A stretch of 64,000 nt of DNA from Phytophthora colocasiae (taxonomy: Eukaryota; Oomycota; Peronosporomycetes; Peronosporales; Peronosporaceae): contig JAGKQI010000051.1 of assembly GCA_018806915.1 (NCBI GenBank), positions 248,001 to 312,000 on the forward strand, in the 5' to 3' direction. Below are positions 24,209 to 60,948 of this stretch, in pieces. Made by a program: the position numbers and the translations under genes. How positions within the stretch are numbered: position 1 is the first letter of the stretch; the number at the start of each line of letters is the position of its first letter. Below the pieces are notes generated by a model. It was not told where the DNA came from, did not search any database, and saw only the letters and a list, made by a program, of their open reading frames with translations.

Positions 24209-24245
24209 ATCCAACTCCTGAGTTGAAGACTGTTTCTCTGTGAGA

Positions 24246-31221: not shown

Positions 31222-31234
31222 TTGGTGGGGAGGG
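31222..31234 (+). other. Polypurine tract of element 2
   Basis: TTTGGTGGGGAGGG directly precedes the 3' LTR start TGTAACGGG. Confidence 0.7.
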
Positions 31235-31645
31235 TGTAACGGGTTACACGGAGCTGCGCGCCTTGGCTACAATAGGTGTGGTATACACCATCCAGGTCAC
31301 AAGTCACAGATCCGTGTACAACACATAGTGTTTCTCACACGTCACACATGTAGCCAGTTGCTGGCTGTTAGCTCAGAGCCACACATTACATTTGATTAGG
31401 ATTTAGTATGTTAGATACTAAATCCGTTACATTCAGGATTAGGGCAATAAAATAAATAAAAATCAGTTTGCATTTTACATAATTAGTGTTAGTTCCTTTA
31501 TTATAGGGACACTGATTGTGAGAGTCCCGTATTTAGTGGACTACTTGGTTCTTGTATAGAACCGAAGGCTAGTGCCTTGCAAGCAGGACTCTACGAGTCA
31601 ACCCAACTTCCTCTGTGCCGTGCACACCTACGCAGCCCCGCTGCA
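31235..31645 (+). repeat. 3' LTR of element 2
   Basis: A 411-bp copy of the 5' LTR ending ...CCCCGCTGCA, followed by the target duplication AAGTC. Confidence 0.93.
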
Positions 31646-40147: not shown

Positions 40148-40149
40148 CT

Positions 40150-40634
40150 TATGGTGGGCTTCGTACGCCCTCACCATTTCCGGAACGTCCTCCATCAGGA
40201 CGTTCCGCGGCTCCCATGTATCTCGATGGGGAGGAAATCCTCTCCAACGAATACGAAAACGAACCCCTTAAGAGTTCGTTCTCTTATGAGCCACGATCCG
40301 CTCCACAATCCAGCGGATCGCTCCACGCGCGTCGCGCAACGGCGGCGGAGCGGGTGGGAACACTCCCTCCGCATGGTCAACGCTATGACCATGACGATCG
40401 TGCCCTGCACGATCGAGTTGCTGCGCTGGAGCAGACACAGAGCGCTGAGATAGCTGCTCTGCTCTGAAGTAGGAGGTTCGTGCCCTCCGTGCTGAGGTCT
40501 GCGAGGCAGCTCAGACTGCCTCGAACCTCTCGTCCGGCCTTGGGACGAGAGTGAACCGGTTGGCCGACCGTTTCGACGGTCTCGAGAAGGCCTTCCAGGC
40601 CTCTCGCACTCCTCAGTCGGACTACCAACCCTAG
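40150..40634 (+). pseudogene. Copy A antisense ORF, C-terminal fragment
   Basis: A plus-strand frame corresponding to the end of the copy C antisense ORF: MYLDGEEILSNEYENEPLKS, then DRALHDRVAALEQTQSAEIA. After a one-base shift it reads RALRAEVCEAAQTASNLSSG and RVNRLADRFDGLEKAFQ, ending at TAG 40632-40634. The heptad pattern predicts a coiled coil. Confidence 0.55.
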
Positions 40635-43600
40635 GTAGTCCGTCCAGCCGGTACGCGTTACCATGCCGTTCAAGTACTTTGAACGGTCCAATGAATCTTG
40701 GAGCAAGCTTGCTTGCTCCAAAGTCAGACACTGTATGTTTAGGCAGGTTTTGTGTAGCTAACAAAACTAATGAACCCACTTTGAATTCATTTATGTTGCC
40801 CCTACCAACATTATCAGCGTTCAGGATCTGTCGATCGACAGAAGCTGCGATAGCATCCTGGACAAACCGTATGACGGCTTGTCTTCGCTGGACAAAGTCT
40901 AGCGCACCCGAGCTGAACTTGTCGCCCTTGTCAGCAGCAGGCCATGCCTGCTCGCCATCATCTCTCATGTCTGTGCCCGGCACAGACATCGCGCGCTCGT
41001 TCCTGCTCGAACGAGACGTCGCACGCGTCACCGCAGCTGATAGTGTGCTGCTATCAGTTGCATTCTGCGGTTGTTCGGACGCAACCGTAGATCCTCCCCC
41101 ACTTAAGGAGGAAGCTACCCCGCCGAGCATGCTCGGCAATCGTGGATGCCTCATGGCATTCACGTAGAACGGTGTATGCCCTGTCGAGGCATGCACCGAG
41201 TTGTTGATGGCAAACTCTGCCATCGGCAAGCACTCGCTCCAGTGCGGGAACGAGTGAGCGTAGCTCTTCAGCGTGTCACCCAGTACGCGGTTGACACGTT
41301 CGGTCTGTCCGTCCGTCTGCGGATGATCCGCAGTCGACATTGATAACTGTGAACCAAGAAGTGTAAACACTTCTTGCCAGAACCGCGCTGTGAAGCGTGG
41401 ATCACGGTCCGACACAATGTCGAGCGGCATGCCATGGTGTTTGAACACCATGTCAACAAACAGTTGCGCAGTCTGCGCGGCTGTAACAGTAGCCGGGACG
41501 GCAGCAAGATGAACCATCTTGCTGAATCTGTCCACAAAGACAACGATGCCCGTCCTCCGCTTGCTGTCAGGCGGAAGACCGAAGACAAAGTCCATGGACA
41601 TGGACTGCCAACACTCCGACGGAGTCGGTAGTGATTGAAGAGGAGCCTGCGAGAACTGCGCAGGCTTCACGCGTTGACAAACCTCGCAAGCACGTACGTA
41701 CTTGCGCACCCACTTGTACTGGTGGTGCCAGTAGAAGTCACGCGTGAGAAGAGTGTATGTCTTCTCACGACCCGGATGCCCTGCCGTGGGGGCATCGTGA
41801 TACTCGAACATGATCCTCAACCGGAGGTCATGATCATTCGGAACGACAATGCGATCCGCATTGTCGTCTACTGCACTGTACAACAGTAGGCCTTCGTGTA
41901 CACGATAGCGGTGTACACGAGCTCGAAGATGAGGGGTTAGCTTCCGACGTGCCACGTCGGAAGGTGCTGCGAGGAACTCCAGCAGCCCCTTCGCGTCTGC
42001 ATCCCTTGCATACGCGTTCTTCACGTCGTCAATCAACGTTGACGACGGCACACTTGTCCTCACGACGCCAACTGCGTTGGCGTCGACAGTCTCCGCGTAG
42101 TCAGGTCGACGCGATAACGCGTAGGCCACTACATTGAGTCTTCCGGGTTTGTACTCCACCCGGAAGTTGTGCTCCGCGAAGAAGGACAACCATCTCGCCA
42201 TACGTTGCGAGATGTGCGGCGACTTAATCGCCGTACGCAATGATGCGTGGTCTGTATAGACCACGAACGGTCTACTCCCAAGTAGATACACTCGGAACTT
42301 TGCGAGTGCATACTTCATGGCAAGGAGCTCCTTGTCATGTACGGGATAGTTACGCTCAGCTGGCTTCAGCTGACGCGATTGATAGTAGACTACACGATCA
42401 CGCCCTTCGTGATCGTGTTGCATCAATGCACATCTGATTGCAAAGTCGGATGCATCGCACACTACGTGGAATGGACGATCTTGGTCCGCCACGGCCAAGA
42501 TCGGCGCTTCATTCAAGCCCTGCTTGACTGCACCGAATGCCTCCTCGCACTCGGTCGTCCAAATCCACTCAGCTTCTTTCTTAAGAAGCTGTGACAACGG
42601 GCGAATCTTGCCCGCGTAGTTGTCCACGTACTTGCACAAGTACGTGGCAAGCCCAAGGAACTGCCTCAGTTCCTTTACATTGGATGGCGTGGGCCATTCA
42701 TTGATCACTCTGACCTTCTCTGGGTCAGGGCGCACGCCGTCTTTCCCCACGAGACACCCCAGCACGGGTATCTCGCTCGCCCCGAAGATACACTTCTTCA
42801 GGTTCGCATAGAGCTTATGCTTCCTCATAAGCTCTAGCAGCTTCCGGAGATGCACCTTGTGCATCTCAATGTCCGTCTTCCCGTTCACAGCCCGGCTGTG
42901 GACGAACACGTCGTCGAAGTAACTCGGTGCGAAGTCGCGCACCGAGCTCAATAGATGCGTCACGCATCTATTGAACGTTGCAGGGGCGTTCTTAAGCCCC
43001 TGTGGCATTACGAGCCACTCCCAAAGCATACCGCTTGGAGTGCTTACCGCTGTGAGAGGGATGTCCCTCTCACGCATGATGATTTGATAGAATCCATCAC
43101 GCAGATCAAGAGCACTGAAGATAGTGCTCAAGACCATCAATCGATGATAACATCTTTTCGCGGTATCGGCCACTGCGCCGGTATCGTCGCATCGTTCAAC
43201 TTGTTGTACGCATGAACGATGCGCCAGCCGCCCTGTGGTTGCTTAACACAGAACGTTGGGGCACTGTGCAGGGACTTCGATTCCCGCACTTGACCTGCAA
43301 GACGACGACTTTCAAAGAAGTCGTCGATCGCTTGTACTTGTTCACGCGGCAGTGGCCACTGCCGTGTAACACAGTACTTCGTGCCCGGCACGAGATCAAT
43401 CTCGTGCTGTACGCCCTTGTCCTTCGGAAACTCCGAAGGAATCTCGTCCGGGAGTACATCCTTGTACTCCCGCAAAACTTCGTAGTAGGGACTCGACCTC
43501 AACGAGTCCCAACTCTGCTCCTCGAAGCGTTGCTTCTTGGTCTTCGCACTGAGGGGGTCATCGCCCTCAGTGATGCCATCGACGACGAGCTGCTTCAGCT

Positions 43601-45392
43601 CCTCGGCTTCGCGATCCACTCTCTCGATATCCGAGAGAATGCAAATTTGTTCGATGCGTCCATCGTACAAGTCCCGCGCGAAGCGCTTCCAACTCATCGT
43701 TGGAAGTGCGGTCAACGCCGACGCACACGTCGGCGGATTCTCCAACCGCATTTTCTGGTACTGTAAACCAGTACCAATACGTGTCAAGACGTTCAACGTC
43801 TCGACACTCGGTGTCTGCTCTGCAGATACACCCTCCTCAGTCACGGACTGAGACTCACACAGCTCACTGAGCTGGTGCAGCGCGCTCTGATACTGTAACG
43901 CAGTATCAAGACGTGTCAAGACGTCCAACGCCTTGACACTCGGTGTCTGCACCGCAGACACACCCTCCATAGTCACGGACTGGGACTCGCAAAGCTCCCT
44001 GAGCTTGCGCCGCGATCTGCCATGGAGCTCAGCTCCAGGCGCTCCACGTCCAAGGCGTCCCACCTTAGACGGGACTTTATCGCAATCGTCAGCGGATTCC
44101 TTCCGCTGACTCGCACATTCAAGCACTGCTAGTGTGCCGCTCATCGCGTGCAGCACCGCTGCACCTGAGCACGCAGGTTCTTCGGGTGTTGGGCGTTTGC
44201 AACCGCCAGCACCTCCTGCCGCGCAGTCGGTTCCCTGAACCGCTGCGCCTCCATCCGCTCCTACGGATGAAGCAACCGCATCGTCGACTCCCGGATTCGA
44301 CGTGCTCTCGCTAGCTTCCTGCGCTAGCGAGTGTTCGCTTGTACACATATCGTCAGCTCCCAGAGCTGACGCACGATCGCTAGTTCCCGGAACTAGCAGC
44401 GAACGTTCGCCTGTACACGCATCATCAGCCCCCGGAGCTGATGCACGATCGCTAGTTCCCAGAACTAGCAGCGACGCGCCAGTGGCGTCAGCTCCCAGAG
44501 CTGACGCACGCCTTTCGGTTCCCCGAATTTTATTTATTTCGTCAACTCCCAGAGTTGACGCGACGTCGTCGGCGCGACCCTTGGAGGCTTGAAGTACCTC
44601 CAAGGATACCGGTAATACCGGTATTTTACCTTCTCTCAGGTGAATCGCATTCACCTGACCATCACTCATGTGACAAACATCATTCGCATCAGGTGATTCA
44701 CATTCACCTGACCATCACTCATGTGACCGCGACCCTTCGGCTCAGATTTCTGAGTCGACACACATTTTCTCACAACGACTCTCGGAGGCAGCGGCGGCCG
44801 CTGCTGCCTCAACTGGGGATTCAAATGCACCGGCCGGTGCATGTGCAGCACTGACAGGGCCATCGCTCTCTGTCGCGCATGTGTTGTTGAAGCGTACGAG
44901 CGTACGCTTCTCCCAGTTGATCACCGGGTCATGCCGTGCAAGCCACGGCATGCCTAATACCAAGTCGAACTTATCGTCTAGATCCAAGACGATAAGATCT
45001 TCTACAAACGTCCTTCGTTTGTAAGAGAAGCGCACACGGACCACGCGCTTCTCACTCCTTACGGTGGCACCTGTTGCCAACCGCACCTCCAACACGCCGC
45101 GAGGCGTGTCGGTCTCTTCGAAGTCAAGCCTTCGAAGACTTCCCTGTCGAACAAAGTTGTTCGACGCGCCCGAGTCCACTAGGGCACGAAGAGAGTTCAC
45201 TCTCTTCGACATCACGTTCAGGATGACAAGGCCTGGCTTGTCATCTTGCATCTCGCAGCGAGAAACCTTCTCGTTGAGGGCAGCAGCCTTCAACGTCGCG
45301 TGTCCGAGTTCGACACGCGAGACTGCATTACCAGTAGGACGCCCTGCGCCTACTGGTCCTTGGCGTTTTTTGAACGCCCGCCCGCTGTGCAC
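40195..45392 (-). pseudogene. Copy A pol: protease, RT, RNase H, integrase
   Basis: The -1 frame from the gag slip site holds the protease (LVDSGASNNF; LVLGMPWLARHD), then a long linker with degenerate tandem units (RASALGAD, LLVPGTSD). RT runs VQHEIDLVPGTKY to IPRKDVIID, where the frame stops at TGA. A -1 frame resumes as LMVLSTIFSALDLRDGFYQI with SYFDDVF. RNase H (CDASDFAI, HDKELLAMKYAL) and integrase (CEVCQRVK, SMDFVFGL, IVSDRDPRF, QTDGQTERVN) follow. Apart from the in-RT frame break this pol is nearly intact. The C-terminal extension beyond KLAPRFIGPFKVLERHG is probably not real protein. Confidence 0.85.
45330..45371 (-). promoter_or_regulatory. -1 ribosomal frameshift signal, copy A gag-pol
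   Basis: On the minus strand the heptamer A AAA AAC (45371-45365) lies in the gag frame. A 7-nt spacer and a perfect 9-bp stem ACCAGTAGG/CCTACTGGT (45357-45349 and 45338-45330) with a 10-nt loop follow. The gag stop TAG lies in the stem. The -1 frame reads FKKRQGPVG into the protease. Confidence 0.8.
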
Positions 45393-46335
45393 TTGCGTGC
45401 ATAGTGACCGATGTTACCACACAGGTAACATCGAACCTTGCCGTATCTACGCTGCTGTTGACCAGCAGTCGTAGCACTCGAGAGGTCCATAGGTTCCGGA
45501 CCTCCCGTCTTCGCAACAGGACGCGCCGGCTTCGGCGCGTTCGCATGGAGTTTAGCTTGACGCCGGCTAAACTCCTCTTGCATCGCAAAGCAGATCGCCT
45601 CCTCGAGAGTATTCGGATACTCTCGAAAGAGATATGTTTTGATGGGACCATCTCTTAGTCCCTTCATGAACGTGACGACCTTGGTCGCCTCGTCGATCGG
45701 GTTGGCCACTATGTTCGATACCAAATATCGAGCACGCTGGGCAAAGGTGTGAACATCATCCTTGCCCTGTTGCAGATCGAGAAACTCCGCTCTCGATCTG
45801 AACTCGTTCTTCGGAGGCTCAAACGCAAGCTTGAGTTCCTCCTTGAACTCCTCGTACGTGTGAAGCACGTAGGATCCGAGAGTCGGCGCCCATAGGCCCA
45901 ACTCCTCGCACGTCCGCCAAGACATGACATGGCGAACGCGACCTTCGACATCGGATCGACGATACGTCGAGCCGCAACGGCTGTGTCGAGTTCGACAAGC
46001 CACCGAAGGAGGGTCTCGTCCTCCTTCCCCGTGTAGGTACTCACGTGGAGTTTCAACGACTCCACGCGTGGCTTCGGGGAAGCCACCGAGGCAGCAACAT
46101 CTCGTTGCTCCTTAACAATGTACCCCAGAGCAACACCGTGTTGCTCTGTCGGCGATAGCGTACGAAGCATCGTCGCTACCGCTGCCTCTCCAATGACTTG
46201 TGAAAGTCTTTGGAGAGCTTCCCACTCTGGATCTGACAGGTGGGCACAGTCCGTGCGCGTCACGGACATGTGAGGGGTCCCAGTGGATCCCTGATCCATT
46301 GGGGAGTTCTCTACCCCGCGTTCGTATGACTCCAT
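45350..46335 (-). pseudogene. Copy A gag, one frameshift
   Basis: Starts MESYERGVENSPMDQ at ATG 46335. A one-base shift near 45860 separates it from YEEFKEELKLAFEPPKNEF and the rest of the capsid-like domain. After GGPEPMDLSSAT comes the CCHC knuckle CYLCGNIGHYARKC, then KNAKDQ and TAG. It is closely similar to copy C and distantly similar to element 2 gag. Confidence 0.82.
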
Positions 46336-46361
46336 ACGAACGAACTGCAGTCGGTCGTGGG

Positions 46362-46384
46362 ACGGACTACAAAGTGCTACCAGG
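46362..46384 (-). other. Primer-binding site of copy A
   Basis: On the minus strand CCTGGTAGCACTTTGTAGTC directly follows the LTR end CCCATTACA. It is the same site as in element 2 and copy C. Confidence 0.6.
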
Positions 46385-46843
46385 TGTAATGGGTCTACCT
46401 AGACCTATTAGGTGGCGTACACGTGCGCTTACGTGTATGAGGAAGCGTGCAATTAGAATAGACTTAATTTAAGTATACTTATTTAAATAAGTATAATTAA
46501 ATCAAATATAACTAAATTAAACTGCAAAATACCGTAAAATGAGAACTGTTATTGAATTTGGCATAAGCCAATTATGGACCTCCTAAAACTGTTTGTTATC
46601 TATTTCTAAAGGGTCTGCCAACGTGTGGTTGGCAGAACTCTGCTCAGTGATTGGTAGAAATCCGTTACTTTCTACCAATAATATGCACAAATGCACACGA
46701 ACCACCCAATGATGTGATTCGCCCATGTAGCCATTGGTGTGTACAGCACACCAAGGTCTGAGGACCATTTCCAACCTCTAACAGTTATCCTAACTGTTAG
46801 AGTTACAAGTGGTACAACCGCTTGTACGTGTAACCCCGTTACA
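46385..46843 (-). repeat. LTR of copy A
   Basis: 459 bp, TGTAATGGG...CCCGTTACA on the plus strand. It is rich in perfect hairpins: TATACTTATTT/AAATAAGTATA, ATTGGTAGAA/TTTCTACCAAT and CTCTAACAGTTA-TCC-TAACTGTTAGAG. It is closer to the right LTR of copy C (60490-60948) than that LTR is to the left LTR of C. Confidence 0.9.
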
Positions 46844-49550
46844 GTACAGCACGAGATTGATCTCGTGCCGGGCACGAAGTACTGTGTTACACGGCAGTGG
46901 CCACTGCCGCGTGAACAAGTTCAAGCGATCGACGACTTCTTTGAAAGTCGTCGTCTTGCAGGTCAAGTGCGGGAATCGAAGTCCCCGCACAGTGCTCCAA
47001 CGTTCTGTGTGAAGCAACCACAGGGCGGCTGGCGCATCGTTCATGCGTATAACAAGCTGAACGATGCGACGATACCGGCGCAGTGGCCGATACCGCGAAA
47101 AGATGTTATCATCGATTGATGGTCTTGAGCACTATCTTCAGTGCTCTTGATCTGCGTGATGGATTCTATCAAATCATCATGCGTGAGAGGGACATCCCTC
47201 TCACAGCGGTAAGCACTCCAAGCGGTATGCTTTGGGAGTGGCTCGTAATGCCACAGGGGCTTAAGAACGCCCCTGCAACGTTCAATAGATGCGTGACGCA
47301 TCTATTGCGCTCGGTGCGCGACTTCGCACCGAGTTACTTCGACGACGTGTTCGTCCACAGCCGGGCTGTGAACGGGAAGACGGACATTGAGATGCACAAG
47401 GTGCATCTCCGGAAGCTGCTAGAGCTTATGAGGAAGCATAAGCTCTATGCGAACCTGAAGAAGTGTATCTTCGGGGCGAGCGAGATACCCGTGCTGGGGT
47501 GTCTCGTGGGGAAAGACGGCGTGCGCCCTGACCCAGAGAAGGTCAGAGTGATCAATGAATGGCCCACGCCATCCAATGTAAAGGAACTGAGGCAGTTCCT
47601 TGGGCTTGCCACGTACTTGTGCAAGTACGTGGACAACTACGCGGGCAAGATTCGCCCGTTGTCACAGCTTCTTAAGAAAGAAGCTGAGTGGATTTGGACG
47701 ACCGAGTGCGAGAATGCATTCGGTGCAGTCAAGCAGGGCTTGAATGAAGCGCCGATCTTGGCCGTGGCGGACCAAGATCGTCCATTCCACGTAGTGTGCG
47801 ATGCATCCGACTTTGCAATCGGATGTGCATTGATGCAACACGATCACGAAGGGCGTGATCGTGTAGTCTACTATCAATCGCGTCAGCTGAAGCCAGCTGA
47901 GCGTAATCATCTCCTGCATACTGACAAGGAGCTCCTTGCCATGAAGTATGCACTCGCAAAGTTCCGAGTGTATCTACTTGGGAGTAGACCGTTCGTGGTC
48001 TATACAGACCACGCATCATTGCGTACGGCGATTAAGTCGCCGCACATCTCGCAACGTATGGCGAGATGGTCGTCCTTCTTCGCGGAGCACAACTTCCGGG
48101 TGGAGTACAAACCCGGAAGACTCAATGTAGTGGCCTACGCGTTATCGCGTCGACCTGACTATGCGGAGACGGTCGACGCCAACGCTGTTGGCGTCGTGAG
48201 GACAAGTGTGCCGTCGTCAACGTTGATTGACGACGTGAAGAACGCGTATGCAAGGGATGCAGACGCGAAGGGGCTGCTGGAGTTCCTCGCAGCACCTTCC
48301 GACGTGGCACGTCGGAAGCTAACCCCTCATCTTCGAGCTCGTGTACACCGCTATCGTGTACACGAAGGCCTACTGTTGTACAGTGCAGTAGACGACAATG
48401 CGGATCGCATTGTCGTTCCGAATGATCATGACCTCCGGTTGAGGATCATGTTCGATGTATCACTGATGCCCCACGGCACGAACGGGTCAGAGGAAGACAT
48501 ACACGCTCTTCTCACGCGTGATTTCCACTACCGCACCACCAGTAGCAGGCGGCGCGCAAGTACGTACGTGCTTGCGAGGTTTGTCAACGCGTGAAGTCTG
48601 CGCAGCTCTCGCAGGCTCCTCTTTCAATCACTACCGACCTGTCGGAGTGTTGGCAGTCCATGTCCATGGCGGACTTTTGTCTTCGGTCTTCCGCCTGACA
48701 GCAAGCGGAGGACGGGCATCGTTGTCTTTGTGGATAGATTCAGCAAGCATGGCTCCATCTTGCCGCCGTCCCGGTTGGTTGCCAGCCGCGCAGACTGGCG
48801 ACTGTTTGCTGACATGGTGAATCAAGCACTCATGGCATGCCGCCTCGACATTGTGCTGGATCGCGATCCCACGCTTCACAGCGCGGGTTTCTGGCAAGAA
48901 GCGTTTACACTTCTGGTTCCACAGTTATCAATATCGACTGCGGATCACATCCGCAGACGGATTTTAATAGACTGGAACGCGTGTCAACCGTGTATTGGGT
49001 GACACGTTGGGGGCAAGAGCTTCGGCGCCTCACTCGTTTCCCGCATTGAGTTGAGAGTGGCATGGCACGGCAGAGCCGTTATCAACAACTCGGTGCATGC
49101 CTCGACAGGGCATATCGTTCTACAGAACGCCATGAGGTATTCACGATTGCCGAGCATGCTCGGCGGGAGTAGCTTCCTGCGGGGGAGGATCTACGGCCAG
49201 TCCGAACAACTTCGCAGAATGCAACCGATAGCAGCATAATTTATCAGCTGCAGACGCGTAGTGCGACGTCTCGTTCGAGCAGGAACGAGCGCGCGGCGTC
49301 TGTGCCGGGCACAGACAGAGATGATATAGCGAGCAGGCAGGGCCTGCTGCTGACAAGGGCGACAATGTCAGAAAGGACCAGCTCTCGGGTGCGCAGACTT
49401 TGTCCAGCGAAGACAAGCCGTCATACGGTTTGTCCAGGATGTTATCCGCAGCTTCTGTCGATCGACAGAAGCTGAACGCTGATACTGCTGGTAGAGGCAA
49501 CAGTTTAAATTCGGTGCGTTCATTAGTCTTGTTAGTCACACAAAACCTAC
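46844..49550 (+). pseudogene. Copy B pol remnant: RT, RNase H, decayed integrase
   Basis: RT and RNase H read cleanly (same TGA break after KDVIID at 47117-47119, then -1 frame through SYFDDVF, CDASDFAIG and a VHDKELL block with an LLHT insertion). From ~48450 the integrase is split by many shifts: pieces such as FCLRSSA, STADHIRRRI and AVINNSVHASTGH are recognisable against copy A. No functional protein is possible. Confidence 0.75.
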
Positions 49551-49749
49551 CGGCATGCAGTGCCTGATTCGACTTGGAGCAAAGCAGCTTGCTCCAGATA
49601 TTCGATTGGGCCGTTCAGCAATTGAACGGCATGGTATCGCGTGTACCGGCTGGACATACCGTTCAGCATGCAGGCCTCCACCTGACCTTCTACGTCCGGG
49701 CGGTTGAAGCCGTATGTGCGTACGGACTACCTAGGCTGTAGTCCGACTG

Positions 49750-51358: not shown

Positions 51359-51458
51359 TTGGCGAGAATGAAACTCGATTTGGGAACTTGACTGTCTTGT
51401 ATCAGAGTTCTAGTTGATTGACGTATCGAGAACCTATGTCAGAATCTTGGCAGGATGG

Positions 51459-51815
51459 TGTAACGGGTTACGTACGAAGTGGTTGTAATATTTCGTGTAA
51501 CTCTAACAGCTAGATAACTGCTGAGCTGGAAATGGGGCTCAGACCTTAGGCTAAAGGCACACCATAAAGGATGCTACGAAAGCTAAACCAGCATTGTTGG
51601 ATGGTTCGTGTGCATTTAGGCATATTATTGGTAGAAACGGATTTCTATACTCAATCACTGAACAAGGAGTTTCTGCTAACCACACGTTGGCAGACCGCTT
51701 TAGAAATAGATAGTCAACAGTTTAAAGCCCGAAGGTCCATGGGTAAATTGCGCTTATGCCAAATTCAATAACAGTTCTCTATTTTACGGTATTTTGTGTT
51801 TTAATTTAATCTCGC
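51459..51815 (+). repeat. Decayed, truncated 3' LTR of copy B
   Basis: Starts TGTAACGGGTTACG after the purine tract CAGGATGG and aligns with the reverse complement of the copy A LTR. It is interrupted by small insertions and stops at TTTTAATTTAAT, where fragment D begins. Confidence 0.7.
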
Positions 51816-52650
51816 AAACGTGCATGGCGAGATGGTCGTCCTTCTTCGCGAACTGGAGGCCAAATCTCCGGGTAGAGTGCCAAACCCAGAGGAAGACTCA
51901 AATGGTGGCCTCATGCGTTATCGCGCGTCGACCTGACTGTGCGGGAAGATTTGGTCTGACGCCAACGCTGTTGGCGTCGTGAGGAAGTTGCCATAAGTGT
52001 GCCGTCGTCAACGTTGATTGACGACGTAGAAGAACTGCGCAGGCAGGGATGCAGACGCGAAGAGGCTGCTGGAGTTCCTCGCAAAGCACCTTCCGACGTG
52101 GCACGTCGGAAGCTAACCCCTTCATCGCTTCGAGCTCGTATGCACCGCTATCGTGTACACGAAGGCCTACATGTTGTGCCAGTGCAGTAGACGACAATGC
52201 GGATCGCATTGTCGTTCCGAATGATCATATTGACCTCGCTGAGGATCATGTTCGAGGTATCACGATGCCCTTACGCAGGGCATCCGGGTCGTGAGAAGAC
52301 ATACACTCTTCTCACGCGTGACTTCTACTGGCACCACCAGTACAAGTGGGTGCGCAAGTACGTACGTGCTTGCGAGGTTTGTCAACGCGTGAAGCCTGCG
52401 CAGTTCTCGCAGGCTCCTCTTCAATCACTACCGACTCCGTCGGAGTGTTGGCAGTCCATGTCCATGGACTTTGTCTTCGGTCTTCCGCCTGACAGCAAGC
52501 GGAGGACGGGCATCGTTGCCTTTGTGGACAGATTCAGCAAGATGGTTCATCTTGCTGCCGTCCCGGCTACTGTTACAGCCGCGCAGACTGCGCGACTGTT
52601 TGTTGACATGGTGTTCAAACACCATGGCATGCCGCTCGACATTGTGTCGG
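51816..52650 (+). mobile_element. Gypsy family 3, fragment D (end of RNase H to integrase core)
   Basis: The plus strand begins at MARWSSFFA and reads decayed RNase H end and linker, then clean integrase: CEVCQRVKPAQFSQAPLQSL, SMDFVFGLPPDSKRRTG and FKHHGMPLDIVS. It is cut at DIVS by the left LTR of copy C at 52651. The expected remainder (DRDPRF) is not found beyond copy C. Confidence 0.75.
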
Positions 52651-53108
52651 TGTAATGGGTCTACCTAGACCTATTAGATGGCGTACACGTGCGCTTACGT
52701 GTATGAGGAAGCGTGCAATTAGAATAGACTTAATTTAAGTATACCTTTTTAAATAAGTATAATTAAATCAAATATAACTAAATTAAACTGCAAAATACCG
52801 TAAAATGAGAACTGTTATTGAATTTGGCATAAGCCAATTATGGACCTCCTAAAACTGTTTGTTATCTATTTCTAAAGGGTCTGCCAACGTGTGGTTGGCA
52901 GAAACTCTGTTCAGTGATTGGTAGAAATCCGTTACTTTCTACCAATAATATGCACAAATGCACACGAACCATCCAATAATGTGGTTCGCTCATGTATCCT
53001 TTGGTGTGTACAGCACACCCAGGTCTGAGGTCTATTTCAACCTCTAACAGTTATCCTAACTGTTAGAGTTACAAATGGTACAACCACTTGTACGTGTAAC
53101 CCGTTACA
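52651..53108 (-). repeat. Left (3') LTR of copy C
   Basis: 458 bp. It differs from the right LTR at a dozen or so positions (for example ATTAGATGG versus ATTAGGTGG, TACCTTTTTAAA versus TACTTATTTAAA). Confidence 0.9.
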
Positions 53109-53198
53109 CCATCCCCCGTTAAGATTCGACGTATCGGTCTCGATACGTCAATCAACAGAACTTGACAAGACCGTCAAGTTCCCAAGAGAAATCCGAGT

Positions 53199-53212
53199 TC
53201 ATTTCGCAATGG
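53199..53212 (+). promoter_or_regulatory. Initiator motif at the start of the copy C antisense ORF
   Basis: TTCATTTCGCAATGG matches TCATTYYNCAWT and overlaps the ATG at 53209. It lies ~90 bp inside the 3' LTR and points in the antisense direction. If transcription starts within it, the leader would be only a few bases or the next ATG would be used. Confidence 0.5.
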
Positions 53213-54576
53213 ACTCGCCAACGCCCACGTCTCCGTCCGCTACTGCGGACGCGCAAGCCTCACCTGCTGCCTTTGCAGCAGGAACAACGACCTCAGCAGT
53301 GCCCACTAGCACTGCTGCTTCCAGCGGTCCGACAGAGAAGCTCTCTGTCACCAAGTACCATGCTCTCCATAATGAGAAGCATGAGAAGAAGAAGAAGTCT
53401 TCTTCTCTAGCAGAGATTAAGAATCCTGCTGTCCCTCTCAAAGAACTCTTTGGAGAGGACTACGAAGACATCCTCGACTACGAGGATGATGTCGAGGAGG
53501 GGGAGGTTGATGTCAAGGCTCCCGCTCCCGTGTCTTCGTCTGAAGACACGTCAGACCCACCCGTGGGATCTCGACGACCTCGTGATGAGGCCTCGGACGC
53601 TTCGAGCTCGAAGCGTCCGCGCAGTGATGATGAAGCGTCCCCCTTGTCGAGGGCGCTTACTGCACCGCGCACTGATCCGCCAGTGCGCACGCCATGGATG
53701 CCTACTGAGGCGGAGAACCATGACCGGTTCGGTGCTAGTGCACCACCGAACCCGATACTGTTGTACTCATGCAACAGTATCAACGACGACGACGTCGCCG
53801 CTAAGGTTGTCTTTGAGTCCGAGACTCAAAGACGCGACTACTATATCGGGCTCTTCCACGAGCTCCGATACTATGCAGCGAAGAAGACTTCGCGCAAGAG
53901 CAAAGTGCCAGAGTGGCAGGCACTTTGTCAGTTATGGAACGCCTTTGTTGATAACTTCAACAAAGACCCGAAGGCATATCGCGATCGCGTTGCTGCGGCT
54001 CGCGATCGCTACTACACTTACACTACACGTGGTAAGTGTGAACGCCTCCATGATCAGTCCATGGAAGCGGGGATCCCATGTGCCGTTCCCTTTGGCACAC
54101 CCTGTCCGTGTTGCCCACCCTTGGCAACACGCCTCACCGAAAGTGATCTCCTGGGGTACACGGTCGTCCGTGTACCCGATCACATCAAGGAACTCCGTGG
54201 TCGTATTGTGCCACGCGAAGCTCCGAGTGCTGTGGCTGAACGCAGCACTCCTCGTGCAGGGTTTAACCCTGCAAGTTATGGTGGGCTTCGTACGCCCTCA
54301 CCATTTCCGGAACGTCCTCCATCAGGACGTTCCGCGGCTCCCATGTATCTCGATGGGGAGGAAATCCTCTCAACGAATACGCAAAACGAACCCTTGAGAG
54401 TTCGTTCTCTTATGAGCCACGATCCGCTCCACAATCCAGCGGATCGCTCCACGCGCGTCGCGCAACGGCGGCGGAGGGTGGGAACACTCCTCCGCATGGT
54501 CAACGCTATGATTACGACGATCGTGCCCTGCACGATCGAGTTGCTGCGCTGGAGCAGACACAGAGCGCTGAGATAG
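53209..54576 (+). CDS. Antisense ORF of gypsy family 3 (455 codons open; C-terminus frameshifted)
   Basis: Runs opposite to pol from ATG 53209. Residues 1-45 are Ser/Thr/Ala-rich. A Lys-rich segment (NEKHEKKKKSSSLAE), a strongly acidic segment (EDYEDILDYEDDVEEGEVDV) and a basic KRPRSDDEAS stretch follow. Residues ~195-290 form a probable folded core (GLFHELRYYAAKKTSRKSKV, then LWNAFVDNFNKDPKAYRDR), with a Cys-rich PCPCCPP just after. A Pro-rich region follows. Near 54375 the frame slips: by comparison with copy A the intended end reads DRVAALEQTQSAEIA and a coiled coil to TAG 54755-54757. No known domain was recognised. The last part overlaps pol antiparallel. The strong charge blocks suggest a nuclear or nucleic-acid-binding protein (inference). 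Confidence 0.65.
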   Translation: MDSPTPTSPSATADAQASPAAFAAGTTTSAVPTSTAASSGPTEKLSVTKYHALHNEKHEKKKKSSSLAEIKNPAVPLKELFGEDYEDILDYEDDVEEGEVDVKAPAPVSSSEDTSDPPVGSRRPRDEASDASSSKRPRSDDEASPLSRALTAPRTDPPVRTPWMPTEAENHDRFGASAPPNPILLYSCNSINDDDVAAKVVFESETQRRDYYIGLFHELRYYAAKKTSRKSKVPEWQALCQLWNAFVDNFNKDPKAYRDRVAAARDRYYTYTTRGKCERLHDQSMEAGIPCAVPFGTPCPCCPPLATRLTESDLLGYTVVRVPDHIKELRGRIVPREAPSAVAERSTPRAGFNPASYGGLRTPSPFPERPPSGRSAAPMYLDGEEILSTNTQNEPLRVRSLMSHDPLHNPADRSTRVAQRRRRVGTLLRMVNAMITTIVPCTIELLRWSRHRALR

Positions 54577-57500
54577 CTGCTCTGCTCTGAAGCAGGAGGT
54601 TCGTGTCCTCCGTGCTGAGGTCTGCGAGGCAGCTCAGACTGCCTCGAACCTCTCGTCCGGTCTTGGGACGAGAGTGAACCAGTTGATCGACCGTGTCGAC
54701 GGTCTCGAGAAGGCCTTCCAGGCCTCTCGCACTCCTCAGTCGGACTACCAACCCTAGGTAGTCCGTGCTGCACGTACGGCTTCAACCGCCCGACGTAGAA
54801 GGTCGGGTGGAGCCTCATGCTGAACGGTATGTCCAGCCGGTACGCGTTGCCGTGCCGTTCAAGTACTTTGAACGGTCCAATGAATCTTGGAGCAAGCTTG
54901 CTTGCTCCAAAGTCAGACACTGCATGTTTAGGTAGGTTTTGTGTAGCTAACAAGACTAATGAACCCTTTTCGAATTCATTTATGTTGCCCCTACCAACAT
55001 TATCAGCGTTCAGCTTCTGTCGATCGACAGAAGCTGCGATAGCATCCTGGACAAACCGTATGACGGCTTGTCTTCGCTGGACAAAGTCTAGCGCACCCGA
55101 GCTGAATCCTTTCAGCTTGTCGCCCTTGTCAGCAGCAGGCCCTGCCTGCTCGCTATCATCTCTCATGTCTGTGCCCGGCACAGACATCGCGCGCTCGTTC
55201 CTGCTCGAACGAGACGTCGCACGCGTCACCGCAGCTGATAGTGTGCTGCTATCAGTTGCATTCTGCGGTTGTTCGGACGCAACCGTAGATCCTCCCCCAC
55301 TTAAGGAGGAAGCTACCCCGCCGAGCATGCTCGGCAATCGTGGATGCCTCATGGCGTTCACGTAGAACGGTGTATGCCCTGTCGAGGCATGCACCGAGTT
55401 GTTGATGGCAAACTCTGCCATCGGCAAGCACTCGCTCCAATGCGGGAACGAGTGAGCGTAGCTCTTCAACGTGTCACCCAATACACGGTTGACACGTTCG
55501 GTCTGTCCGTCCGTCTGCGGATGATCCGCAGTCGATATTGATAACTGTGAACCAAGAAGTGTAAACGCTTCTTGCCAGAACCGCGCTGTGAAGCGTGGAT
55601 CACGGTCCGACACAATGTCGAGCGGCATGCCATGGTGTTTGAACACCATGTCAACAAACAGTCGCGCAGTCTGCGCGGCTGTAACAGTAGCCGGGACGGC
55701 AGCAAGATGAACCATCTTGCTGAATCTGTCCACAAAGACAACGATGCCCGTCCTCCGCTTGCTGTCAGGCGGAAGACCGAAGACAAAGTCCATGGACATG
55801 GACTGCCAACACTCCGACGGAGTCGGTAGTGATTGAAGAGGAGCCTGCGAGAACTGCGCAGACTTCACGCGTTGACAAACCTCGCAAGCACGTACGTACT
55901 TGCGCACCCACTTGTACTGGTGGTGCCAGTAGAAGTCACGCGTGAGAAGAGTGTATGTCTTCTCACGACCCGGATGCCCTGCCGTGGGGGCATCGTGATA
56001 CTCGAACATGATCCTCAACCGGAGGTCATGATCATTCGGAACGACAATGCGATCCGCATTGTCGTCTACTGCACTGTACAACAGTAGGCCTTCGTGTACA
56101 CGATAGCGGTGTACACGAGCTCGAAGATGAGGGGTTAGCTTCCGACGTGCCACGTCGGAAGGTGCTGCGAGGAACTCCAGCAGCCCCTTCGCGTCTGCAT
56201 CCTCCTTGCATACGCACGCATTCTTCACGTCGTCAATCAACGTTGACGACGGCACACTTGTCCTCACGACGCCAACAGCGTTGGCGTCGACCGTCTCCGC
56301 ATAGTCAGGTCGACGCGATAACGCGTCGGCCACTACATTGAGTCTTCCGGGTTTGTACTCCACCCGGAAGTTGTACTCCGCGAAGAAGGACAACCATCTC
56401 GCCATACGTTGCGAGATGTGCGGCGACTTAATCGCCGTACGCAATGATGCGTGGTCTGTATAGACCACGAACGGTCTACTCCCAAGTAGATACACTCGGA
56501 ACTTTGCGAATGCATACTTCATGGCAAGGAGCTCCTTGTCATGTACGGGATAGTTACGCTCAGCTGGCTTCAGCTGACGCGATTGATAGTAGACTACACG
56601 ATCACGCCCTTCGTGATCGTGTTGCATCAATGCACATCCGATTGCAAAGTCGGATGCATCGCACACTACGTGGAATGGACGATCTTGGTCCGCCACGGCC
56701 AAGATCGGCGCTTCAGTCAAGCCCTGCTTGACTGCACCGAATGCATCCTCGCACTCGGTCGTCCAAATCCACTCAGCTTCTTTCTTAAGAAGCTGTGACA
56801 ACGGGCGAATCTTGCCCGCGTAGTTGTCCACGTACTTGCACAAGTACGTGGCAGAGCCCAAGCGAACTGCCTCAGTTCCTTTACATTGGATGGCGTGGGC
56901 CATTCATTGATCACTCTGACCTTCTCTGGGTCAGGGCGCACGCCGTCTTTCCCCACGAGACACCCCAGCACGGGTATCTCGCTCGCCCCGAAGATACACT
57001 TCTTCAGGTTCGCATAGAGCTTATGCTTCCTCATAAGCTCTAGCAGCTTCCGGAGATGCACCTTGTGCATCTCAATGTCCGTCTTCCCGTTCACAGCCCG
57101 GCTGTGGACGAACACGTCGTCGAAGTAACTCGGTGCGAAGTCGCGCACCGAGCGCAATAGATGCGTCACGCATCTATTGAACGTTGCAGGGGCGTTCTTA
57201 AGCCCCTGTGGCATTACGAGCCACTCCCAAAGCATACCGCTTGGAGTGCTTACCGCTGTGAGAGGGATGTCCCTCTCACGCATGAGGATTTGATAGAATC
57301 CATCACGCAGATCAAGAGCACTGAAGATAGTGCTCAAGACCATCAATCGATGATAACATCTTTTCGCGGTATCGGCGTCTGCGCCGGTATCGTCGCATCG
57401 TTCAACTTGTTGTACGCATGAACGATGCGCCAGTCGCCCTGTGGTTTCTTAACACAGAGCGTTGGAGCACTGTGCGGGGACTTTGATTCCCGCACTTGAC

Positions 57501-59498
57501 CTGCAAGACGACGACTTTCAAAGAAGTCGTCGATCGCTTGTACTTGTTCACGCGGCAGTGGCCACTGCCGTGTAACACAGTACTTCGTGCCCGGCACGAG
57601 ATCAATCTCGTGCTGTACGCCCTTGTCCTTCGGAAACTCCGAAGGAATCTCGTCCGGGAGTACATCCTTGTACTCCCGCAGAACTTCGTAGTAGGGACTC
57701 GACCTCAACGAGTCCCAACTCTGCTCCTCGAAGCGCTGCTTGGTCTTCGCACTGAGGAGTCATCGCCCTCAGTGATCCCATCGACGACGAGCTGCTTAAG
57801 CTCTTCGGCTTCGCGATCCACTCTCTCGATATCCGAGAGAATGCAAATTTGTTCGATGCGTCCATCGTTCAAGTCCCGCGCGAAGCGCTTCCAACTCATC
57901 GTTGGAAGTGCGGTCAACGCCGACGCACACGTCGGCGGATTCTCCAACCGCATTTTCTGGTACTGCAAACCAGTACCAATACGTGTCAAGACGTTCAACG
58001 TCTCGACACTCGGTGTCTGCACTGCAGATACACCCGTCTCAGTCCCGGACTGAGACTCGCGCAGCTCCCTGAGCTTGCGCCGCGAAGATCTACCATGGAG
58101 CCCGGCTCCAGGTGCTCCACGTCCAAGGCATCGCACCTTGGACGGGACGTTATCGCAGTCGTCAGCGGATTCCTTCCGCTGACTCGCACTATCAAGCCCT
58201 GCTTGAGTGCCGCTCATCGCGTGCAGCGCTGCTGCACGTGAGCACGCAGGTTGTTCGGGTGCTGGGCGTTTGCAACCGCCAGCACCTCCTGCCGCGCAGT
58301 CGGTTCCCTGAACCGCTGCGCCTCCATCCGCTCCTGGAGCGGATGAAGCAACCGCATCGTCGACTCCCGGAGTCGACGTGCTCTCGCTAGCTTCCTGCGC
58401 TAGCGAGTGATCGCTTGTACACATATCATCCGTTCCCAGAGCGGATGTACGATCGCTAGTTCCCGGAACTAGCAGCGACTGTTCGCCTATACACGTCTCA
58501 TCAGCTCCCGGAGCTGATGACCGATCGCTAGTTCCCGGAACTAGCAGCGAAGCGCCAGTGGCGTCAGCTCCCAGAGCTGACGCACGTCTTTCGGTTCCCC
58601 GAATATTATTTGCTTCGTCAACTCTCAGAGTTGACGCGACGTCGTCGGCGCGACCCTTGGGGGCTTGAAGTACCTCCAAGGATACCGGTATATTACCTTC
58701 TCTCAGGTGAATCGCATTCACCTGACCATCACTCATGTGACAAACATCATTCAGATGTTTACGCGTCAGGTGATTCACATTCACCTGACCATCACTCATG
58801 TGACCGCGACCCTTCGGCTCAGATTTCTGAGTCGACACACATTTTCTCACAACGACTCCCGGAGTCGTTGATGGTCGCCGGCGGCGATCGGAGGCAGCGG
58901 CGGCCGCTGCTGCCTCAACTGGGGATCCACATGCACCGGCCGGTGCATGTGCAGCACTGACAGGGCCATCGCTCTCTGTCGCGCATGTGTTGTTGAAGCG
59001 TACGAGCGTACGCTTCTCCCAGTTGATCACCGGGTCATGCCGTGCAAGCCACGGCATGCCTAATACCAAGTCGAACTTATCGTCTAGATCCAAGACGATA
59101 AGATCTTCTACAAACGTCCTTCGTTTGTAAGAGAAGCGCACACGGACTACGCGCTTCTCAGTCCTCACGGTGGCACCCGTTGCCAACCGCACCTCCAACA
59201 CGCTGCGAGGCGTGACGGTCTATTCGAAGTCAAGCCTTCGAAGACTTCCCTGTCGAACAAAGTTGTTCGACGCGCCCGAGTTCACTAGGGCACGAAGAGA
59301 GTTTACTCTCTTCGACATCACGTTCAGGATGACAAGGTTTGGCTTGTCATCTTGCAGCTTACAGCGAGAAACTTTCTCGCTAGGGGCAGCAGCCTTCAAC
59401 GTCGCGTGTCCGAGTTCGACACGCGAGACTGCATTACCAGTAGGACGCCCCGCGCCTACTGGTCCTTGGCGTTTTTTGAACGCCCGCCCGCTGTGCAC
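54276..59498 (-). pseudogene. Copy C pol: protease, RT, RNase H, integrase, several lesions
   Basis: The protease reads LVNSGASNNF, with Asn in place of the catalytic Asp, and has an in-frame TAG after RRLDFE (~59220). The linker with LLVPGTSD-type units runs to ~57720, where a base loss shifts the frame. RT stops at KDVIID-TGA as in copies A and B and resumes in -1. A further lesion near 56870 (RQFAWALPRT) splits RT from RNase H. RNase H and integrase from 56903 are clean (ADALSRRPDY, SMDFVFGL, IVSDRDPRF, QTDGQTERVN). The end at RLHPTFYVGRLKPY is the true polyprotein end; no chromodomain was seen. Confidence 0.85.
59436..59477 (-). promoter_or_regulatory. -1 ribosomal frameshift signal, copy C gag-pol
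   Basis: Same signal as copy A: A AAA AAC at 59477-59471, a 7-nt spacer, and the 9-bp stem ACCAGTAGG/CCTACTGGT (59463-59455 and 59444-59436) containing the gag TAG. Confidence 0.8.
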
Positions 59499-60440
59499 TT
59501 GCGTGCATAGTGACCGATGTTACCACACAGGTAACATCGAACCTTGCCGTATCTACGCTGCTGTTGACCAGCAGTCGTAGCACTCGAGAGGTCCATAGGT
59601 TCCGGACCTCCCGTCTTCACAACAGGACGCGCCGGCTTCGGCGCGTTCGCATGGAGTTTAGCTTGACGCCGGCTAAACTCCTCTTGTATTGCAAGGCTGA
59701 TCGCCTCCTCGAGAGTATTCGGATACTCTCGGAAGAGATACGTCTTGACGGGACCATCTCTTAGTCCCTTCATGAACGTGACGACCTTGGTCGCCTCGTC
59801 GATCGGGTTGGCTACTATGTTCGATACCAAGTATCGAGCACGCTGGGCAAAAGTGTGAACATCATCCTTGCCCTGCTGCAGATCGAGAAACCCCGCTCTC
59901 GATCTGAACTCGTTCTTCGGAGGCTCAAACGCAAGCTTGAGTTCCTCCTTGAACACCTCGTACGTGCTGAAGCACGTAGGATCCGAGAGTCGGCGCCCAT
60001 AGGCACAACTCCTCGCACGTCCGCCAAGACATGACATGGCGAACGCGACCTTCGACATCGGATCGACGATACGTCGAGCCGCAACGGCTGTGTCAAGTTC
60101 GACAAGCCAACGAAGGAGGTCTCGTCCTCCTTCCCGTGTAGGTACTCACGTGGAGTTTCAACGACTCCACGCGTGGCTTCGGGGAAGCCACCGAGGCAGC
60201 AACATCTCGTTGCTCCTTAACAATGTACCCCAGAGCAACACCGTGTTGCTCTGTCGGCGATAGCGTACGAAGCATCGTCGCTACCGCTGCCTCTCCAATG
60301 ACTTGTGAAAGTCTTTGGAGAGCTTCCCACTCTGGATCTGACAGGTGGGCACAGTCCGTGCGCGTCACGGACATTTGAGGGGTCCCAGCAGATCCCTCAT
60401 CCATTGGGGAGTTCTCTACCCCGCGTTCGTATGACTCCAT
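59456..60440 (-). pseudogene. Copy C gag, one frameshift
   Basis: ATG 60440 (MESYERGVENSPMDEGS). A small deletion near 60115 shifts the frame (STYTGRRTRPPS). The second part from MSKVAFAMSCLGGRARS holds the capsid-like block, GGPEPMDLSS and the knuckle CYLCGNIGHYARKC, ending KNAKDQ-TAG. Confidence 0.82.
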
Positions 60441-60465
60441 ACGAACGAACAGCAGTCGGTCGTGG

Positions 60466-60489
60466 GACGGACTACAAAGTGCTACCAGG
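60466..60489 (-). other. Primer-binding site of copy C
   Basis: On the minus strand CCTGGTAGCACTTTGTAGTC follows the LTR end, identical to copy A. Confidence 0.6.
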
Positions 60490-60948
60490 TGTAATGGGTC
60501 TACCTAGACCTATTAGGTGGCGTACACGTGCGCTTACGTGTATGAGGAAGCGTGCAATTAGAATAGACTTAATTTAAGTATACTTATTTAAATAAGTATA
60601 ATTAAATCAAATATAACTAAATTAAACTGCAAAATGCCGTAAAATGAGAACTGTTATTGAATTTGGCATAAGCCAATTATGGACCTCCTAAAACTGTTTG
60701 TTATCTATTTCTAAAGGGTCTGCCAACGTGTGGTTGGCAGAACTCTGCTCAGTGATTGGTAGAAATCCGTTACTTTCTACCAATAATATGCACAAATGCA
60801 CACGAACCACCCAATGATGTGGTCCGCTCATGTAGCCATTGGTGTGTACAGCACACCAAGGTCTGAGGACCATTTCCAACCTCTAACAGTTATCCTAACT
60901 GTTAGAGTTACAAGTGGTACAACCACTTGTACGTGTAACCCCGTTACA
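60490..60948 (-). repeat. Right (5') LTR of copy C
   Basis: 459 bp, nearly identical to the copy A LTR (a few differences, such as AAATGCCGT versus AAATACCGT). It ends CCCGTTACA and is followed by CGTCGCGG of an unrelated gypsy fragment. Confidence 0.9.

What the first reader, a model, noticed from the sequence alone, without database searches (positions are those of the whole stretch)
40148..60948. Gypsy family 3 is tiled with short perfect inverted repeats whose arms co-vary between copies
Coding DNA and LTRs of copies A and C are covered by hairpins every few tens of bases. Examples in 1.3 kb of copy A: CAAGAAGTGT/ACACTTCTTG (41355-41376), ACGACAATGCG/CGCATTGTCGT (41843-41867), CTTCCGACGTG/CACGTCGGAAG (41941-41963), ACACGATCACG/CGTGATCGTGT (42392-42418), CCACGTACTTG/CAAGTACGTGG (42624-42647). 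Arms of 9-11 bp with 1-5 nt loops at this density are far beyond chance. Arms also co-vary: A has CGTCAGCTC-CCA-GAGCTGACG (44351-44371) where C has CATCCGTTC-CCA-GAGCGGATG (58427-58447), with two base pairs changed on both sides plus one wobble, while the encoded ASALGAD becomes TSALGTD. A has TGGAGCT-C-AGCTCCA (44023-44037) where C has TGGAGCC-C-GGCTCCA (58096-58110). Selection or a mutational process therefore maintains pairing even at the cost of protein sequence. Neighbouring host genes and element 1 do not show this. Possible roles, all inferred: RNA packaging, resistance of sense and antisense transcripts to pairing or Dicer, or template-switch correction of quasi-palindromes during reverse transcription.
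Basis: seen in the sequence. Interest (0 to 1): 0.95.

Follow-up and report, generated by a model that had tools for sequence, protein, structure and literature searches.

The report
Retrotransposon tiled with selected short hairpins
A group of jumping genes in what appears to be a Phytophthora genome is densely written in short, perfectly self-complementary hairpins that selection seems to keep intact, with a different typical hairpin length in each family tested, and what they are for is not known.

Summary
Family 3 (8.3-kb Ty3/Gypsy element, probably Phytophthora) holds 150 perfect inverted repeats (arm at least 7, loop at most 12) in copy C against 5.75 in dinucleotide shuffles; codon-preserving shuffles agree, host genes are at chance. 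Folding excess is 37% sense and 43% antisense; the highest vertebrate RNA virus value quoted in one paper is 23.4%.

In 23 aligned rows, singletons hit arms as often as other sites, but variants shared by at least 5 rows are sevenfold rarer inside arms, thirteenfold at synonymous sites. Pairing is kept in the replicating lineage, not by host DNA repair. Arm-to-arm conversion predicts up to 37 paired double changes inside arms; 1 was seen. Loop inversions suggest some template switching.

Element 1 does show the feature, with 5-bp stems and 3-nt loops. Other Gypsy loci sampled do not.

Best reading: selected, family-specific, strand-symmetric folding of single-stranded intermediates, perhaps for packing by the element's own Gag/RT. 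Function is inferred.

The parts
52649..60949 (-). Family 3 copy C, complete Ty3/Gypsy element with two LTRs (about 460 bp, 52649-53109 and 60488-60949); 150 perfect inverted repeats of arm >=7, loop <=12
40149..46843 (-). Family 3 copy A; lacks the 3' part (its end at 40149 corresponds to C 54276); 114 inverted repeats
46844..51808 (+). Family 3 copy B, 5'-truncated, 96-100% identical to C in windows of its first 1.5 kb and 83-95% after that; 54 inverted repeats
51809..52650 (+). Extra fragment of family 3 beside B (91% identical to C 55607-56417, inverted relative to C)
41355..41376 (-). Example hairpin, arm 10, loop 2
41843..41867 (-). Example hairpin, arm 11, loop 3
41941..41963 (-). Example hairpin, arm 11, loop 1
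42392..42418 (-). Example hairpin, arm 11, loop 5
42624..42647 (-). Example hairpin, arm 11, loop 2
58096..58110 (-). Covarying hairpin (C state in 13 rows, A state, at 44023-44037, in 7 of 23)
58402..58550 (-).
44326..44474 (-). Same tandem repeat in copy A
53209..54576 (+). Antisense ORF (455 aa) between pol and the 3' LTR, overlapping the pol end; 469 database relatives, the 120 listed largely Phytophthora
23777..31645 (+). Element 1, related Gypsy family (68% identical in RT): 228 non-overlapping hairpins of arm >=5, loop <=9, covering 42% (shuffles 12%), with a peak at 5-bp stem + 3-nt loop

Best explanation
A group of related Ty3/Gypsy families in this genome is under selection to write its sequence (LTRs, gag, pol and the antisense-ORF region) as strings of short, local, perfectly Watson-Crick hairpins. 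Shown here: the excess; its presence in three related families and absence in the other Gypsy loci sampled; for family 3, a deficit of shared but not of private variants inside arms; no clear strand preference; a sharp fall beyond about 30 nt of span; hairpin cover that overlaps between families only as often as chance; and a different typical geometry per family (element 1: 5-bp stem + 3-nt loop; family 2: mostly 7-9 bp; family 3: mostly 7-11 bp, peak 9). Most likely use, also inferred: condensing and recognising the element's own nucleic acid inside its particle.
For: Enrichment over dinucleotide and codon shuffles. Variants shared by >=5 rows: 7 on 1893 inner-arm sites, 123 on 4751 other sites, 31 on 593 loop sites; singletons 266, 721 and 109 on the same sites (inner arm vs other: p = 2e-11 shared, 0.25 singletons). 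Synonymous sites, shared >=5: 1 on about 297 inside arms, 32 on about 697 outside (p = 1.5e-4). Inside arms, 100 one-sided shared changes expected if unconstrained, 18 seen plus 1 unpaired double; up to 37.5 paired doubles expected under conversion, 1 seen; in the coding frames alone 12.9 vs 1, in the 3' region 10.4 vs 0. Compensatory change in family 2: 12 of 285 pairs vs 0-4 in twelve slid controls, with one-base intermediates. Settled mismatches A-C 15, G-U 10. Arm >=9: 87 at loop 0-11, 3 at 12-17. Element 1, loop 3, arm exactly 5: 58 vs 4.8.
Against: Pairs at arm ends are hardly depleted (22 one-sided seen vs about 29 expected). Shared family 3 variants inside arms lean to G-U over A-C (9 vs 3). 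The 12 covarying pairs do not exceed a random-pair null (mean 5.9, maximum 12 of 200 draws), though arms vary less than those random pairs. Three of 7 family 2 hairpins found in 3 rows or fewer differ from the majority by four arm bases, as templated gains might. Loop inversions point to template switching. No regular spacing (CV 0.627, random placement 0.674). A few hairpins keep the same centre between families (2 of 15, 2 of 11, 2 of 5, 0 of 5; chance not computed). Family-specific geometry rests on three families, and for element 1 on one full copy plus 2 kb of another.
Confidence: 0.45

Rival explanations
1. Shield against RNA silencing. Hairpins on both strands keep sense and antisense transcripts, or the small RNAs cut from them, folded on themselves, so fewer duplexes and effective guides form.
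For: Strand symmetry fits, and an antisense ORF suggests antisense transcription. 25-mers folding below -6 kcal/mol on both strands: 23.5% in C vs 4.9% in its shuffle; 19.9% in element 1.
Against: A host pathway common to all elements should favour one geometry and all Gypsy families; here stems are about 5 bp in one family and about 9 in another, and the other Gypsy loci tested fold slightly less than shuffles. About 60% of C is not covered by these hairpins.
Confidence: 0.2
2. Mutational: the element's reverse transcriptase often folds back and copies its own nascent strand, turning near-palindromes into perfect ones (quasi-palindrome template switching), with a typical arm length set by each family's RT.
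For: Strand symmetry, Watson-Crick perfection, local range and family-specific geometry all fit. Among 105 variable loops of family 3, five minority loops equal the reverse complement of the majority loop (one by a single base; one is also the plain complement), none the plain reverse; of 60 loop haplotypes with >=2 changes, 8 are closer to the reverse complement and 1 to the plain reverse (p = 0.04). Three of 7 rare family 2 hairpins differ by four arm bases. Spacer inversion and arm homogenisation are known products (PMC8604942, abstract and discussion read).
Against: 1 paired double change inside arms vs up to 37.5 expected (the expectation is an upper one, as protein constraint was applied in three C frames only; in those frames 12.9 vs 1). 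Of 12 family 3 entries for hairpins found in 3 rows or fewer (one LTR hairpin entered twice), 11 differ from the majority by one arm base and the twelfth is an alignment-gap case. Some family 2 gains run through one-base steps on both arms.
Confidence: 0.17
3. Ordinary genome-scale ordered structure of the sense RNA (GORS-like), or dispersed packaging stem-loops read in the genomic RNA only.
For: Sense folding excess 37% in 350-nt pieces; hairpin cover not shared between families beyond chance, as described for GORS (passages of PMC7642675); loops of C are purine-rich on the sense strand (300 of 502 vs 2970 of 5675, p = 0.0015; not significant in L051, L034 or element 1); segregating shared variants G-U 9, A-C 3.
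Against: The antisense strand is as structured (43%); G-U is not favoured over A-C in settled stems; stems are perfect and confined to about 30 nt.
Confidence: 0.13
4. Chance, composition, codon usage or assembly artefact.
For: None found.
Against: Dinucleotide and codon shuffles; 12.4-18.7 per kb in 20 further loci on other contigs.
Confidence: 0.01

Closest known systems
[quoted passage not shown]
   Same: Structure spread over the whole genome, coding included, agnostic about which bases pair (passages of PMC7642675).
   Different: An LTR retrotransposon; in family 3 a 37-43% folding excess vs about 15% for SARS-CoV-2 and 23.4% for the highest vertebrate virus quoted there (element 1, 10.0%, and family 2, 6.3%, lie in the viral range); equal on both strands; perfect short stems with a span limit; stem length differs by family.
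Coding palindromes in mitochondrial genes of Nematomorpha
   Same: Perfect inverted repeats inside protein-coding DNA, gained and lost between relatives (PMC6649704: abstract, discussion and passages read).
   Different: Those reach 284 bp and their authors suggest a conversion mechanism; here arms in A and C reach 13 bp at most (loop <=12), LTRs and other regions are tiled too, and the copies point to selection rather than conversion.
Dispersed packaging signals (MS2, hepatitis B virus pregenomic RNA and others)
   Same: Many short stem-loops spread through a genome and thought to act in assembly (highlights and passages of PMC6281560; search listing).
   Different: MS2 and hepatitis B signals carry a loop motif; here no common motif was seen in element 1 triloops, loops vary most, and both strands are alike. 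In C, 12 of 16 one-base loops are G.
Quasi-palindrome template switching between inverted repeats
   Same: Arms alike, loops sometimes inverted (PMC8604942, abstract and discussion read).
   Different: It predicts many paired double changes, which are missing in family 3.

Membership tests
Ty3/Gypsy LTR retrotransposon | gag, protease and pol in the order RT-RNase H-integrase, between two LTRs | tested here: met
   PF03732, zf-CCHC, RVP_2, RVT_1, RT_RNaseH, Integrase_H2C2, rve over copies A and C; LTR pair of C 96% identical
GORS | Folding excess over dinucleotide shuffles along the whole sequence | tested here: met
   C sense mean 37.0%, minimum 24.4%, 23 pieces of 350 nt, 5 shuffles each
GORS | Pairing agnostic of position between relatives | tested here: met
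   Overlap of hairpin cover at chance between families (shift p 0.29-0.42); a few same-centre hairpins
GORS | Link to persistence or evasion of RNA sensing | not testable with these tools
   Needs cell experiments
Sense-RNA structural element | G-U tolerated more than A-C within stems | tested here: inconclusive
   Settled mismatches A-C 15, G-U 10 and A-C 37, G-U 21 over five representatives (not background-corrected, three of them close relatives) go against it; segregating shared variants G-U 9, A-C 3 go the other way
Dispersed packaging signals | Shared loop motif | tested here: inconclusive
   Element 1 triloops: 36 different loops among 77, the most frequent 6 times; loops are the most variable class in family 3; but 47 of 77 triloops close with C-G and 12 of 16 one-base loops of C are G
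Dispersed packaging signals | Binding by the element's own capsid protein | not testable with these tools
   No binding data
Template-switch conversion of inverted repeats | Frequent paired double changes | tested here: not met
   Inside arms 1 vs up to 37.5 expected; at arm ends 3 vs about 10.7
Template-switch conversion of inverted repeats | Spacer (loop) inversion | tested here: met
   5 loop haplotypes equal to the reverse complement, one by a single base change
Known Rfam RNA family | Match at gathering score | tested here: not met
   0 matches in 23000-61500 against 4227 families

The most novel reading that the evidence does not exclude
Each family of this retrotransposon group writes its genome in hairpins of its own characteristic stem length: a second, structural text laid over the protein code, kept by selection at least as strictly as the protein, and read on both strands by the family's own Gag or RT as an identity and packing code.
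Probability: 0.3. Interest if true: 0.95.

Novelty: new variant of a known kind. Interest (0 to 1): 0.87.

Why it matters
Retrotransposons are usually read as genes plus a few cis signals. Here hairpins cover about 39% of an 8.3-kb element, and the deficit of shared variants at synonymous sites inside arms is about thirteenfold, against about threefold for non-synonymous relative to synonymous sites outside hairpins. The folding excess of family 3 is above the highest value that one paper quotes for a vertebrate RNA virus. Related families with different stem lengths, and other Gypsy elements without the feature, all in one genome, form a natural experiment on what genome-wide folding does for a reverse-transcribing element: packing, silencing escape or polymerase behaviour.

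Tried and rejected
Chance, dinucleotide content and codon usage were rejected with shuffles. Host-level quasi-palindrome repair was rejected because singletons are spread evenly. Arm conversion as sole maintainer was rejected. A sense-only RNA fold was judged unlikely. Codon phase showed no consistent preference. Regular spacing was looked for and not found. Relatives in viral contigs and genome contigs: none confirmed for the one pol protein tried, so other Phytophthora were seen only as proteins. The model of the antisense ORF was poor (mean pLDDT 57.9) and no fold search was made.

Literature: ten searches of an open-licence library. No entry in the listings shown was about a retrotransposon tiled with short hairpins; listings were capped and subscription papers and preprints are not held. 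Forsdyke's 'fold pressure' idea is recalled; its search gave a listing only.

Limits. (1) Family 3 statistics use 23 rows: C, A, B and 20 loci chosen from the 39 other places listed, themselves the 40 scored of 279 candidates. (2) Rows are aligned to C, insertions are ignored, and a copy with one LTR may fill both LTR columns, so LTR counts can be doubled. (3) Minimum letters per column: 18, 15, 12. (4) Shared variants are not fully independent, because copies share ancestry. (5) Family 2 uses 16 rows over 3.5 kb, chosen by profile span; L055 (99.6% identical to L034) was not added. (6) 'Other Gypsy loci' are L032, L033, L036, L037 and L058, alike by blastn, plus L031, which matched none of them; no tree was built. 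(7) In one search locus L015 was read on the antisense strand, so its G-U and A-C labels are swapped; one search is not used as evidence here.
Full report
What is there. The window lies in a 92.5-Mb genome in 105 contigs. Nearest named proteins are largely from Phytophthora, so the host is inferred to be a Phytophthora. Family 3 is a Ty3/Gypsy element with gag (PF03732, zf-CCHC), protease, RT-RNase H and integrase (over copies A and C). Copy C (52649-60949, minus strand) is complete with two LTRs of about 460 bp; A (40149-46843, minus) lacks its 3' part; B (46844-51808, plus) is truncated.

Is it more than chance? Yes. All nine quoted hairpins are in place. Perfect inverted repeats of arm at least 7 and loop at most 12 number 114 in A (5.7 in dinucleotide shuffles), 54 in B (3.3) and 150 in C (5.75), while three host stretches give 18, 6 and 3 against 15.05, 4.9 and 1.8. 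Codon-preserving shuffles of three C frames give 2.9, 2.5 and 0.6 against 43, 31 and 8. LTR, gag/pro, pol and 3' region of C are all tiled: 13.0, 15.8, 11.4 and 20.6 per kb at arm at least 8. In 350-nt pieces the folding excess over dinucleotide shuffles is 37.0% sense and 43.2% antisense in C, 10.0% and 13.4% in element 1, 6.3% in one family 2 locus, and 1.0% and -2.9% in two host stretches. Passages of PMC7642675, which used a similar but not identical procedure, give about 15% for SARS-CoV-2 and 23.4% as the highest recorded in vertebrate RNA viruses. Only family 3 exceeds that range.

Which elements have it? Twenty further family 3 loci show 12.4-18.7 per kb. Two loci of a related family 2 (about 68% identical to family 3) show 7.4 and 5.7 per kb, and fourteen more 5.4-6.9. 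Element 1 (23777-31645) shows only 2.7 per kb at this threshold, but at loop 3-8 it has 216, 130 and 39 stems of 4, 5 and 6 bp against 115.5, 29.0 and 8.4. The peak is a 5-bp stem with a 3-nt loop (58 vs 4.8), and 47 of 77 triloops have a C-G closing pair. Codon-preserving shuffles confirm it: 22 vs 2.9 and 26 vs 4.9 in two frames; 2 kb of a second element 1 copy agrees. Six other Gypsy loci, five of them alike by blastn, show 0-1.0 per kb, and the two tested fold slightly less than shuffles (-3.6% and -5.0%). Between families 2 and 3 and element 1, hairpin cover overlaps only as often as chance (shift p 0.29-0.42), although 2 of 15, 2 of 11, 2 of 5 and 0 of 5 comparable hairpins keep the same centre.

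Selection or mutation? In 23 aligned rows, singletons, probably mostly mutations after insertion, fall alike on inner-arm and other sites (266 on 1893 sites vs 721 on 4751, p = 0.25), whereas variants shared by at least 5 rows, which passed through further replication, number 7 vs 123 on the same sites (p = 2e-11), and 31 on 593 loop sites. At synonymous sites the shared count is 1 on about 297 sites inside arms and 32 on about 697 outside. The broadest hairpin definition, present in any row, was used. If nothing constrained the arms, about 100 one-sided shared changes (3 rows or more) were expected inside arms and 18 were seen, plus one unpaired double. If arms were kept alike by conversion, up to 37.5 paired doubles were expected and 1 seen. 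By region this is 12.9 vs 1 in the three coding frames, 10.4 vs 0 in the 3' region, 12.2 vs 0 in unassigned sequence and 2.1 vs 0 in LTRs. Outside the three frames no protein constraint was applied, so the total is an upper figure. Pairs at arm ends behave differently: 22 one-sided seen vs about 29 expected, and 3 doubles vs about 10.7, as if many end pairs were chance extensions. Of twelve family 3 entries for hairpins in three or fewer rows (one LTR hairpin entered twice), eleven differ from the majority by one arm base and the twelfth is an alignment-gap case; in family 2, three of seven differ by four arm bases, which could be templated. Five loops equal the reverse complement of the majority loop (one by a single base change), and loop haplotypes with two or more changes are closer to the reverse complement (8) than to the plain reverse (1). 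Some template switching or flipping is therefore likely. In family 3 it is not what keeps the arms paired.

Covariation. C's state is private to C, with one mispair, and resembles a neighbouring unit. Neighbouring units of that repeat do carry different, self-paired arms. The second example is real: 13 rows with one pair, 7 with the other. At greater distance, family 2 shows two pairs changed on both sides at alignment positions 369/389 and 372/386 and single pairs elsewhere, some with one-base intermediates. In all, 12 of 285 pairs changed on both sides against 0-4 in slid controls; a random-pair null gives mean 5.9 and maximum 12 of 200, so by that null the excess is modest.

Strand. If only the sense RNA folded, G-U should be favoured over A-C. 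Settled mismatches in family 3 are A-C 15, G-U 10; five representatives summed give A-C 37, G-U 21 (p = 0.048; not background-corrected); segregating shared variants lean the other way (G-U 9, A-C 3). Taken together there is no clear preference, so I treat both strands as alike. Stems with arm at least 9 number 87 at loop 0-11, 3 at loop 12-17, and are scarce beyond. Hairpins are not regularly spaced.

How it probably works. Geometry differs between families within one nucleus, and other Gypsy elements lack it. That argues for a reader encoded by the element rather than a host pathway. Symmetry argues for molecules of both polarities, which a retrotransposon makes as genomic RNA and minus-strand cDNA, or as sense and antisense RNA. 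My best reading is packing and recognition of the element's own nucleic acid by its Gag or RT; this step is inference. Silencing escape is the main rival: an antisense ORF of 455 aa with 469 database relatives suggests antisense transcription, and hairpin spans match small-RNA sizes reported for P. infestans (passages).

Compared with what is known. GORS is the nearest kind; two of its three features were tested and met. The excess of family 3 is larger, strand-symmetric, built of perfect stems, and stem length differs by family. Nematomorph coding palindromes are the nearest case of perfect repeats in coding DNA, but they are far longer and their authors suggest conversion. Dispersed packaging signals usually carry a loop motif, for which I saw no clear sign. 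I therefore call it a new variant of a known kind, with a more novel reading open. In the listings of ten literature searches no entry described such a retrotransposon.

Noticed in passing
window 53209-54576 (+): Antisense ORF of 455 aa between pol and the 3' LTR of family 3, where the sense frames hold 8-17 stops. Non-synonymous/synonymous ratio per site 0.37 for shared variants, but already 0.55 for singletons. 11 of 15 full rows have no in-frame stop with gaps read as N; only C itself is also free of gap columns. 469 relatives, 120 listed, largely Phytophthora; no Pfam family; invariant basic residues at 122-125 and 135-136 look like a nuclear signal (recalled motif). Resembles the antisense additional ORFs of plant Grande, RIRE2 and Retand (passages of PMC7264820).
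   Followed up: partly
window 29169-30332 (-): Element 1 also has a 387-aa antisense ORF, partly overlapping the pol end; no significant BLASTP similarity to the family 3 antisense ORF.
   Followed up: partly
L033, L036 (whole loci): Two Gypsy loci without the feature are slightly less folded than their dinucleotide shuffles, as if hairpins were avoided.
   Followed up: partly
window 46844-51808: Copy B is 96-100% identical to C for about 1.5 kb and 83-95% after that, a mosaic or unequal decay.
   Followed up: no
window 43754-44005: 132-bp tandem repeat, 1.9 copies, in copy A.
   Followed up: no
window 1-1494 and 6531-9768: Multicopper-oxidase-like sequence duplicated in inverted orientation (69%), with a direct repeat of about 257 bp at 1238 and 6531 (96%).
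   Followed up: no
window 23777 and 31645: Element 1 is flanked by what looks like a 5-bp target-site duplication, AAGTC.
   Followed up: no
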